Assembly (NCBI GenBank): GCA_900298995.1
Contig: OMIC01000039.1
Span: 186,001-250,000, forward strand
Reading direction: 5' to 3'
Length of the DNA: 64,000 nt
From: Hyphomicrobiaceae bacterium
GTDB lineage: Bacteria; Pseudomonadota; Alphaproteobacteria; Rhizobiales; Aestuariivirgaceae
In this document: positions 15,799 to 46,724 of the stretch, piece by piece
How positions within the stretch are numbered: the first letter of the stretch is position 1
Layout: the number at the start of each line of letters is the position of its first letter
Program-made: the position numbers and the translations under genes
Notes under the pieces: model-generated
The model's input: the letters and a program-made list of their open reading frames with translations, nothing else
Database searches by the model: none
What the model was told of the DNA's origin: nothing

Positions 15799-15906
15799 GG
15801 GTCGATTGGTTGACAGCCGGAGGTCCCCCGGCTAAGGAACCCGCCAACGAACAACAGGCGGGGCAGGGCATCTGGCTCTTACTGCCTGAAATATCAGGTG
15901 AAGTCC

Positions 15907-39085: not shown

Positions 39086-39204
39086 GGACACCCGGAAAAC
39101 AAGCATTGCGCGCCGCCCGGCCGCCGGTTATATCACCGTCATTCCCATCATGCTGTCGTAAAGACAGGGAACCTGAAACACCGGTTCTCAAGGAGTGAAA
39201 GATC

Positions 39205-39948
39205 ATGTCCCGCCCACCGTTGATGCCAAAGGCCACCGCCGTCTAGCTGGTTGAGAACACCGGCCTGTCCTTCCGCCAGATCGCCGATTTCTGCCATCTC
39301 CACGAGCTCGAGGTGAAGGGCATTGCGGACGGCGACGTGGCGGCCGGAATCAAGGGCCTCGATCCGGTCACCGGCGGCCAGATCACCCGCGAGGAGATCG
39401 AGAAGGGCGAGAAGGACGCCGAATACCGGCTCAAGATGCTTGAATCCAAGGTCAACATCCAGGTCCAGAAGGCGACCTCCGGCCCGCGCTACACACCGGT
39501 CTCGCGCCGTGGCGACCGTCCGGACGCCATCGCCTGGCTGTTGCGTCACCATCCGGAGCTTCCGGACTCCGCCATCATGAAGCTTGTCGGAACCACGAAG
39601 TCCACGATCAATGCGGTGCGCGACCGCAGCCACTGGAACGCGCCGAACATAAAGCCGGTTGATCCCGTATCGCTTGGCATCTGCTCACAGCTGGCGCTGG
39701 ACTTCGCAGTGCAGAAGGCTGCGCGCAAGGCAGGCCGCCCTGCAGCCGATCAGGCGCCTGTCCGCACTCTCATCCCGGCTGCCGAGGTCGAAGGCACGGC
39801 GGCCCATGCCGCGGCGCAGGCTGCCGAAGAGCAGCCGACCTTTGCTGCTTCTGAGCTCGCGGCCAGGGAGGTCGAGCCCTCTTATGATGCCGACTCGGTG
39901 TTCGCCAAGCTGAAGTCGCTGAAGCGCAGCGACCAGGACGGAGAGTAA
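39205..39948 (+). pseudogene. trcR: Cell-cycle regulator TrcR (DUF1013) with in-frame amber codon 14
   Basis: AAGGAG precedes ATG at 39205-39207, and the frame reads MSRPPLMPKATAV, TAG (39244-39246), LVENTGLSFRQIADFC, then runs intact to 39948. DUF1013/TrcR homologues read ATAVWLV here, so a conserved Trp (TGG) is replaced by TAG through one G-to-A change. If the codon were read, the protein would have 247 aa with HTH-like DNA-binding parts (IADFCHLHELEVKGIADG; MKLVGTTKSTINAVRDRSHW). No frameshift or other stop is present and codon use is normal, so decay would be very recent. Alternatives: sequencing error, suppression, or restart at a later codon. A GTG at 39313 would lose the first 36 residues. 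Confidence 0.85.
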
Positions 39949-39953
39949 TCGCC

Positions 39954-40553
39954 ATGCGCATTCTCGTGGTGGGTGCGTCGGGAACGGTTGGCCGCTCTGC
40001 GGTCGCTGAACTGTCGCGCCGGCACGAGGTCGTGACGGCAGGCCGCACCGCGGGCGAGGCGACTGTTGACCTCATGAACGAGGAATCGGTCAGGGCGATG
40101 TTCGCTCGTCTGGGCCGGCTTGACGCCGTCGTGGCCTGTGCGGGTCATGTTCATTTCGGGCCGCTTGCCAGCATGACCCCGGCGCAGTTCCGCAAAGGTC
40201 TTGATGACAAGCTCATGGGCCAGATCAACCTGGTGCTGCTTGGTCTTCCTCATGTCGCCGATGGTGGTTCCTTCACCCTGACCAGCGGCATCCTCGACCG
40301 CGACCCGGTACGGGCAGGTGCGAATGCTGCAGCCGTCAATGGCGCAATCGGCGGATTCGTGAAGGGCGCGGCAATCGACATGCCGCGTGGCATCCGCATC
40401 AATGCGGTGAGCCCGGGGCTCCTCGAGGAGTCAGCGGCAAAGTATGACGGCTTCTTCCCCGGTCATGAGCCGGTGTCCTCGGTCCGTGTCGGCCTTGCCT
40501 ACGCCAAGAGCGTCGAGGGCGGATTGACGGGCCAGGTGATCACCGTGGGCTGA
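39954..40553 (+). CDS. Short-chain dehydrogenase-like protein lacking the catalytic Tyr
   Basis: A 199-aa Rossmann-fold protein with the nucleotide-binding start MRILVVGASGTVGRSAV and the AVVACAGHVHFGPL (NAG-like) segment. At the usual Tyr-x3-Lys position it reads AAVNGAIGGFV, so both catalytic residues are replaced, although the Ser (LTSGIL) and the later VSPGLLEESAAKY block remain. A subgroup of ~200-aa SDR-like proteins shows the same pattern. It may bind NADP without classic dehydrogenase chemistry. It starts 5 nt after trcR, so it is likely cotranscribed. Confidence 0.85.
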   Translation: MRILVVGASGTVGRSAVAELSRRHEVVTAGRTAGEATVDLMNEESVRAMFARLGRLDAVVACAGHVHFGPLASMTPAQFRKGLDDKLMGQINLVLLGLPHVADGGSFTLTSGILDRDPVRAGANAAAVNGAIGGFVKGAAIDMPRGIRINAVSPGLLEESAAKYDGFFPGHEPVSSVRVGLAYAKSVEGGLTGQVITVG

Positions 40554-45578: not shown

Positions 45579-46724
45579 ATGACCGATTCGGAAACAGTCC
45601 CGACCAGCGGAGAGGATGCCAGCCACAGACCTCGGCGCATTGCCGGGCTGTTTGCGCTGGGGTTCCGCGCTCAGACCCCTATCCTGGTTCTGGTTCTGGC
45701 TTATCTCGGAATACAACTGCTCCTCGCCGCGCTGTTCCCGCCCTTGACCACCGTCTCCCCCCAGACCGTCTTCCTGGCTGTCATCTCGATGTTTCTGGGT
45801 TTGCTGTTCTTTCTAGTGATCATTCTCTCTGCGTATCTCTTCATTATCATGGCTGTCTACGAACGGCCGAAGCGTCCGACGGTTCATCTCATCCGACGCA
45901 TGGCAGCGGTGATACGCAGTCCACGCAACCTGGCGTCTGGTCTTCCCATTTTTGTCAGCACATTGATCCTCGTCTATGCCTTTTCCCGGATCAAGGGCAG
46001 CATTCCCTTTATTGCTCCGTTCTCCTGGGACACGACCCTGGACCACTTGGATCTGGTGCTGCATTTTGGCCGCCGTCCATGGGAGTGGCTCCATCCCATT
46101 CTTGGCCACTGGCCTGTCACCTTCGTGATAAGCGTCATCTATAATCTCTGGTTCGCAGTGATGTATGGCGTCTGGCTGCACCACGCGTTCATGGAGCGAC
46201 CAGGCATGCAACGCACGCGCTATTTCCTGACATTCATGCTGCTGTGGATGGTGGCGGGAAGCCTGCTGGCACTGTTGCTCTCATCGGCGGGGCCTTGCTT
46301 CTATGGCCAGGGCAGGCTCGGACTTTCGCCCGACCCCTATGCTCCGCTGGTGACCTATCTGCATGCCGTTAACGACATCGTTCCGATCTGGGCGCTGAGC
46401 ATTCAGGACATGTTGTGGAAGTTGCATCTCTCAAACCTCATGGAAAGCAGCATATCGGCCATGCCGAGCCTGCATAATGCAACCTCGCTGTTGTTTGTCC
46501 TGGCCAGCCGAGGCTGGCCGCGCTGGGTACGCACACTGCTTGTCGCGCATTGCGGGGTGGTGTTCATTGGCTCAGTGCATCTCGCCTGGCATTACGCAGT
46601 GGACAGTTATGTGGGCTGGGCGGTGACCATTCTCCTGTGGTGGCTCATGGCTCCAGTGGCGCGCTGGTGCGAGTCACGCCCGGCCGCGCGGCGTTTTCAG
46701 CGCACATATCAGGCGTCGGCATAA
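45579..46724 (+). CDS. PAP2-superfamily (inositol phosphorylceramide synthase-like) membrane enzyme
   Basis: A 381-aa protein with about seven hydrophobic segments. The C-terminal half has the PAP2 catalytic pattern: SAMPSLHNATSLLF and HLAWHYAVDSYVGW, with the His-x3-Asp pair. This two-part arrangement is that of PAP2_3/AUR1-type enzymes, which transfer phosphoinositol or other head groups to lipids or act as phosphatases. The start is placed at the ATG at 45579 (GGGAG 6 nt upstream); an ATG four codons earlier is possible. Followed after 89 nt by an acyl-CoA synthetase, suggesting a lipid role; the exact reaction is unknown. Confidence 0.83.
   Translation: MTDSETVPTSGEDASHRPRRIAGLFALGFRAQTPILVLVLAYLGIQLLLAALFPPLTTVSPQTVFLAVISMFLGLLFFLVIILSAYLFIIMAVYERPKRPTVHLIRRMAAVIRSPRNLASGLPIFVSTLILVYAFSRIKGSIPFIAPFSWDTTLDHLDLVLHFGRRPWEWLHPILGHWPVTFVISVIYNLWFAVMYGVWLHHAFMERPGMQRTRYFLTFMLLWMVAGSLLALLLSSAGPCFYGQGRLGLSPDPYAPLVTYLHAVNDIVPIWALSIQDMLWKLHLSNLMESSISAMPSLHNATSLLFVLASRGWPRWVRTLLVAHCGVVFIGSVHLAWHYAVDSYVGWAVTILLWWLMAPVARWCESRPAARRFQRTYQASA

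What the first reader, a model, noticed from the sequence alone, without database searches (positions are those of the whole stretch)
39205..39948. In-frame amber codon replaces a conserved Trp in the cell-cycle regulator TrcR
Seen: an AAGGAG-led ATG, then TAG at 39244-39246 (codon 14), then an uninterrupted frame of 233 further codons with high conservation. Known: DUF1013/TrcR homologues have Trp here (ATAVWLV), so a single TGG-to-TAG change explains it. TAG ends other genes here (rpmJ, rpmE, DUF2189), so amber is not reassigned genome-wide. Inference: a very recent nonsense mutation, an assembly error, a suppressor strain, or programmed readthrough of a core regulator; the intact downstream frame argues against old decay.
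Basis: partly seen in the sequence, partly recalled or inferred. Interest (0 to 1): 0.7.

Follow-up and report, generated by a model that had tools for sequence, protein, structure and literature searches.

The report
Lone stop codon in trcR
A conserved bacterial regulator gene carries one premature stop codon in this single genome and in no intact relative examined, which most likely means a very recent loss-of-function mutation or a sequencing error, not a special way of reading genes.

Summary
The window holds ATG at 39205, TAG at 39244-39246 (codon 14), then 233 open codons matching Pfam TrcR (PF06242, 2.3e-63). It is the only trcR found in its genome, which belongs to an Aestuariivirga-like genus of Hyphomicrobiales.
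At codon 14, 98 of 100 distinct sequences have TGG; the exceptions are the window and one genus-mate whose 5' end is missing. So the amber was seen in this genome alone.
No sign of recoding was found. RF1 is present. None of 44 tRNA matches has a CUA anticodon, though the tRNA set is incomplete. There is no PylS and no unusual RNA fold. TAG ends 42 of 216 long open frames sampled.
The downstream sequence is as constrained as in sister species, so the change, if real, is young. A real recent nonsense allele (slightly favoured) and a consensus error could not be separated: no reads and no second genome of the species were available. If real, TrcR should be absent or scarce; a trcR deletion is reported viable in Caulobacter (passages). 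Programmed readthrough and a suppressor strain are not supported. This is an ordinary finding.

The parts
39191..39196 (+). Shine-Dalgarno-like AGGAGT ahead of the trcR start
   Evidence: sequence; pairing with a typed anti-SD hexamer -6.3 kcal/mol, best of the nine in-frame start-type codons scored plus this one; similar in the closest genus-mates printed.
39205..39243 (+). trcR codons 1-13 (MSRPPLMPKATAV), intact
   Evidence: PLMPKATAV precedes codon 14 in 99 of 110 loci.
39244..39246 (+). in-frame TAG at codon 14, where the other sequences that can be read have a Trp codon
39247..39948 (+). remaining trcR frame, 233 codons and TAA, PF06242
   Evidence: constrained like sister genes.
39313..39315 (+). 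first in-frame start-type codon after the TAG (GTG, codon 37); a second GTG follows at 39337 (codon 45)
   Evidence: upstream pairing -2.2 and -4.4 kcal/mol. Use as starts is untested.
39954..40553 (+). short-chain dehydrogenase-like gene starting 5 bases after the trcR stop; possibly co-transcribed and subject to polarity
   Evidence: spacing, frame; Pfam adh_short; co-transcription is inferred.

Best explanation
A private, very recent nonsense allele of the only trcR gene found in this genome. A single-base difference turns the invariant Trp14 codon into amber. RF1 should end translation after 13 residues, so TrcR is absent or reduced to what ordinary leakiness or weak downstream restarts give. 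Shown: the amber, its absence from the other sequences read, the intact and constrained downstream frame, one gene copy, RF1, no CUA tRNA seen. Inferred: that the base is real in the organism, that little or no functional protein is made, and that the cell tolerates this as Caulobacter tolerates a trcR deletion on rich medium.
For: Codon 14 is TGG in 98 of 100 distinct sequences. One match in the genome. RF1 487 bits, above cut-off. No CUA anticodon. dN to three more distant genus members 0.181, 0.180, 0.181, inside the range of the nine nearest genus-mates (0.158-0.212); dN/dS 0.10-0.14 against those nine. At 112 columns conserved in a set of 32 genus sequences it departs once, the others 0 to 3 times: no sign of decay. 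Loss is survivable in Caulobacter on PYE (PMC12864828 passages). PMC7918605 (abstract and first parts of two sections) reports in-frame stops in bacterial genes as widespread and mostly short-lived.
Against: No reads, no second genome of the species, so the base itself is unverified. trcR is strongly conserved (295 of 315 good class genomes) and was scored essential in a Tn-Seq made with nalidixic acid (passage), which makes a real null allele rarer and an error relatively likelier. No other gene compared in this genome was judged broken, so general decay is not visible. A premature stop need not be a null: passages of PMC11126739 report that 16 of 117 E. coli reporters with a premature stop showed high fluorescence, TGA being the leakiest.
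Confidence: 0.5

Rival explanations
1. Consensus or assembly error: the organism has an ordinary trcR and the draft assembly shows one wrong base, or a minority-strain base, at this place.
For: A lone substitution in an otherwise intact, constrained gene is what an error looks like. The assembly is a 58-contig draft in which no Asp-GTC, Ile-GAT, Ala-TGC or Arg-ACG tRNA was seen and no 16S match was found (that search also missed 5 of 14 controls, so it is weak). [quoted passage not shown]
Against: Completeness 99.36%, contamination 0.11%; no other gene judged broken in the partial comparisons.
Confidence: 0.37
2. Downstream restart: translation re-initiates at GTG 39313 or GTG 39337 and makes an N-terminally shortened TrcR that keeps the second helical unit and the tail.
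For: Two in-frame GTG codons follow within 31 codons of the TAG, the second with modest anti-SD pairing of -4.4 kcal/mol. The Pfam match begins at residue 21 of the 233, two residues before the first GTG.
Against: The lost part is among the most conserved of the protein (L6, M7, A10, A12, V13, W14, L15 invariant in the 47 aligned) and holds predicted helices 8-18 and 23-30 (block pLDDT about 94 for residues 11-40). The long start region is kept in the relatives.
Confidence: 0.07
3. Programmed readthrough of the amber as a regulatory switch.
For: Purifying selection downstream, which youth explains equally well. Premature stops can be leaky in E. coli, depending on context and stress (PMC11126739 passages).
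Against: TAG in none of the other 99 distinct sequences (98 have TGG, 1 cannot be read); the fold around the TAG is slightly less stable than shuffles (z +0.71); RF1 present; TAG is an ordinary terminator.
Confidence: 0.03
4. Amber suppressor strain or pyrrolysine-type decoding.
For: The tRNA set recovered is incomplete, so an unseen tRNA cannot be excluded.
Against: 42 tRNAs with assigned anticodons and 2 Gly-like fragments, none CUA; ARAGORN alone on 464 kb found 6 tRNAs, all already in that list; no PylS; tRNA-Trp has a normal five-pair anticodon stem (read by eye).
Confidence: 0.02

Closest known systems
TrcR / DUF1013 (PF06242), RNA-polymerase-associated factor of Alphaproteobacteria
   Same: The frame downstream of the TAG is a clear PF06242 member, one match in the genome, with the usual start region and ribosome-binding site.
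   Different: Amber at codon 14, where the other sequences that can be read have Trp.
Short-lived in-frame nonsense substitutions in bacterial genes (Belinky et al. 2021, PMC7918605)
   Same: A single stop in an otherwise constrained gene; the paper concludes that such stops tend to persist for about the time of population polymorphism (abstract; first parts of sections 4 and 7).
   Different: [quoted passage not shown] this stop is seen in one genome.
Amber recoding (pyrrolysine, suppressor tRNAs)
   Same: An in-frame UAG followed by a long conserved frame.
   Different: No CUA tRNA seen, no PylS, and the position is an ordinary Trp codon in relatives.

Membership tests
TrcR (PF06242) | Profile match over the domain | tested here: met
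   212.9 bits against a cut-off of 22.2, profile positions 1-138 of 139.
TrcR (PF06242) | Uninterrupted frame from the conserved start region | tested here: not met
   TAG at codon 14; it is a trcR gene, broken as read.
TrcR (PF06242) | Association with RNA polymerase | not testable with these tools
   Stated for Caulobacter (PMC10754441 and PMC12864828 passages); nothing tested here.
Recent nonsense allele | Downstream frame free of further lesions and as constrained as in relatives | tested here: met
Recent nonsense allele | The base is present in the organism's DNA | not testable with these tools
   No reads and no second genome of the species.
Programmed stop readthrough | Stop conserved in related genomes | tested here: not met
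   1 of 100 distinct sequences has it, the window itself.
Programmed stop readthrough | Stimulatory RNA structure near the stop | tested here: not met
   z +0.71, 149 of 200 shuffles fold at least as well; one 141-base stretch tested.
Amber suppression or reassignment | tRNA with CUA anticodon | tested here: inconclusive
   None among 44 matches, but four expected tRNAs were not recovered either.
Amber suppression or reassignment | TAG avoided as terminator, or RF1 lost | tested here: not met
   TAG ends 42 of 216 long open frames; RF1 present.

The most novel reading that the evidence does not exclude
The amber is real and fixed in this species, and the cell lives with a leaky or N-terminally shortened TrcR as a stable low-dose state. 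This would be a species-level loss of the N-terminal helical unit of TrcR; a genus-mate (G030/L048) also lacks its trcR 5' end.
Probability: 0.05. Interest if true: 0.45.

Novelty: already known. Interest (0 to 1): 0.12.

Why it matters
As it stands it matters little: it is a reminder that a lone stop in a conserved gene of a draft genome cannot be read as recoding. If the allele proved real and fixed, it would show that a factor kept in most sampled Alphaproteobacteria (351 of 385 genomes) can be lost or reduced in nature, and would point to conditions where TrcR is dispensable.

Tried and rejected
Second trcR copy: none; 1 match in G000.

Reassigned amber, suppressor tRNA, pyrrolysine: searched and not found; limited by the incomplete tRNA set.

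RNA structure at the TAG: none beyond chance.

Other broken genes in the window: greedy tblastn with open frames from stretches of G018, G019 and G028 gave 53 non-overlapping alignments, all between 13494 and 63777, so the first 13 kb was not tested. Six held stops. I judged trcR the only real gene interrupted; the other five (stops at 15832/15559, 18618, 37747/37795, 54855, 60276) look like shadow frames, stretches upstream of likely starts or weak short matches. One query matched in two frames (46148-46336 and 46335-46709); the PAP2 frame there is open, so I took it for a shadow frame too. These are my readings, not separate tests.

A wider comparison with 438 open frames called in 498 kb of G018 found 64 with a match of at least 60% identity in 464 kb of G000. 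Two had stops, an over-extended MFS frame and the antisense frame of trcR; trcR itself had evidently been displaced from the calls by that antisense frame. No frameshift was flagged.

A codon-score scan for same-frame open frames joined by a stop gave 111 candidates in 464 kb. It does not separate adjacent genes from broken ones, and trcR itself did not pass its filter, so I drop it. Only the terminator counts are used.

Stops elsewhere in the class: 9 listed rows besides G000 carried a stop; all 9 were fetched, and none had a stop in the stretch tblastn aligned, which begins at residue 4-5 and ends between 168 and 233. The row list was cut, so unlisted genomes were not checked.

Genus-mates without trcR: G022 and G009 also lack an intact orthologue of the neighbouring dehydrogenase (G009 has only a fragment near a contig end), so the locus is probably in an assembly gap. 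G016 and G035 are cut by contig ends.

16S rRNA as a pointer to the kind of assembly: no match, but the search missed 5 of 14 controls.

Solved structures: no sequence match at E <= 1; no Foldseek match at E <= 0.001.

Literature: no listed title or abstract opening concerns a trcR with an in-frame stop; those searches cover open-licence papers only, and the main TrcR paper (PNAS 2021, PMC7923619) is not held. (listings only) gave nothing used.

Full report
What is there. The window reads ATG at 39205, TAG at 39244-39246 and then 233 open codons to TAA at 39946-39948. The part after the TAG matches Pfam TrcR, PF06242, at 2.3e-63 over profile positions 1-138 of 139. The start has a good ribosome-binding site, -6.3 kcal/mol against an anti-Shine-Dalgarno hexamer, better than any of the nine in-frame start-type codons downstream. 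A zinc-type alcohol dehydrogenase gene lies upstream and a short-chain dehydrogenase-like gene begins 5 bases after the trcR stop.

Whose genome. G000 has 2,987,378 bases in 58 contigs, completeness 99.36% and contamination 0.11%, with one trcR match. All 11 are titled MAG; one is titled Aestuariivirga sp., the others Hyphomicrobiales, Alphaproteobacteria or other names. That G000 is itself a metagenome assembly is a guess; it fits the missing tRNAs noted below.

Is the amber conserved. I read the codon homologous to position 14 in 110 loci, 30 and 80. It is TGG in 108, TAG in the window, and cannot be read in L048, whose 5' end is missing. Among 100 distinct sequences the counts are 98, 1 and 1. 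W14 is invariant in 47 aligned homologues, chosen from 97. A class-wide search matched 351 of 385 genomes, 295 of 315 good ones. In its listed rows nine others besides G000 were flagged for a stop; all nine were fetched and none had a stop where tblastn aligned them. The row list was cut, so this is not a full count.

Is there machinery to read it. RF1 is present at 487 bits, with a second, RF2-like match. The genome gave 44 tRNA matches. ARAGORN assigned 42 anticodons, none CUA; the other two are Gly-CCC-like by my reading, with poor acceptor stems. ARAGORN alone on the window and 400 kb of further stretches found 6 tRNAs, all in that list. Asp-GTC, Ile-GAT, Ala-TGC and Arg-ACG were not seen, so the set is incomplete. 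There is no PylS match. The RNA around the TAG folds no better than shuffles, z +0.71. TAG ends 42 of 216 long open frames in 464 kb of this genome, and also the DUF2189 gene and the rpmJ- and rpmE-like genes of the window.

How old could it be. Downstream of codon 14, dN from this gene to three more distant genus members is 0.181, 0.180 and 0.181. The nine nearest genus-mates give 0.158 to 0.212 to the same three. Against those nine, dN is 0.093-0.129 and dS 0.71-0.94, dN/dS 0.10-0.14. At 112 columns conserved in a set of 32 genus sequences it departs once; the others depart 0 to 3 times. In a narrower set of 13 it departs twice at 147 columns, the others 0 to 4 times. Its terminal branch (0.094) is longer than those of the nine (0.006-0.063), but it has no close sister in the set and no excess dN, so I do not read this as relaxation. 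A stop that had silenced the gene for long would have left more change. The allele is therefore young, or it is not real.

What it would do. An AlphaFold2 model of an intact relative (L002; mean pLDDT 75.4, pTM 0.37) puts W14 in helix 8-18, the first of three N-terminal helices (8-18, 23-30, 34-42), with a second helical trio at 101-139. Calling these units helix-turn-helix is my reading; no solved structure matched at E <= 0.001. Termination at codon 14 leaves 13 residues. Restart at GTG 39313 or 39337 would lose most or all of the first unit. The expected result is a null or near-null allele, perhaps with polarity on the next gene (inferred). Against a full null, passages of PMC11126739 report that 16 of 117 E. 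coli reporters with premature stops showed high fluorescence, with TGA the leakiest. Passages in PMC12864828 say that Caulobacter in-frame trcR deletions are viable on PYE but sensitive to nalidixic acid, and that trcR was scored essential in a Tn-Seq made with that drug. Passages in PMC10754441 call TrcR an RNA-polymerase-associated factor. I saw passages only. The primary paper is not held.

Real or error. In the part of the window that could be compared (13.5-63.8 kb) trcR is the only gene that I judge interrupted, and a partial comparison of 64 matched frames in 464 kb showed no other that I judge broken. This speaks against widespread decay and against a high error rate, but a single error in three million bases would be no surprise (general knowledge). 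I put a real recent allele at 0.5 and an error at 0.37; the split is judgement.

Known context. PMC7918605 (abstract, first parts of sections 4 and 7) reports that in-frame stops in bacterial genes are widespread and mostly short-lived, and expects a substantial fraction of the raw cases to be artefacts. This case falls within that description and needs no new mechanism.

Noticed in passing
L048 and L162 (G030, record JAPLOT010000044.1), upstream of the trcR match: A genus-mate's trcR has its ribosome site and ATG followed directly, out of frame, by the VTGGQLTRDE region; about 158 bases of 5' coding sequence are missing by my count. Real deletion or assembly artefact not resolved.
   Followed up: partly
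L149 (G000:C57:3190-3252) and L154 (G000:C2:171966-172034): Two Gly-CCC-like tRNA sequences with degenerate or mismatched acceptor stems that ARAGORN does not call; possibly tRNA pseudogenes or remnants at integration sites.
   Followed up: partly
G000, whole genome: No Asp-GTC, Ile-GAT, Ala-TGC or Arg-ACG tRNA was seen among 44 matches although completeness is given as 99.36%.
   Followed up: no
G018:C1:368204-369850, minus strand, opposite trcR: A 549-residue open frame runs antisense to trcR in G018 and evidently displaced trcR in a simple codon-based gene call; likely a shadow frame of a high-GC gene.
   Followed up: no
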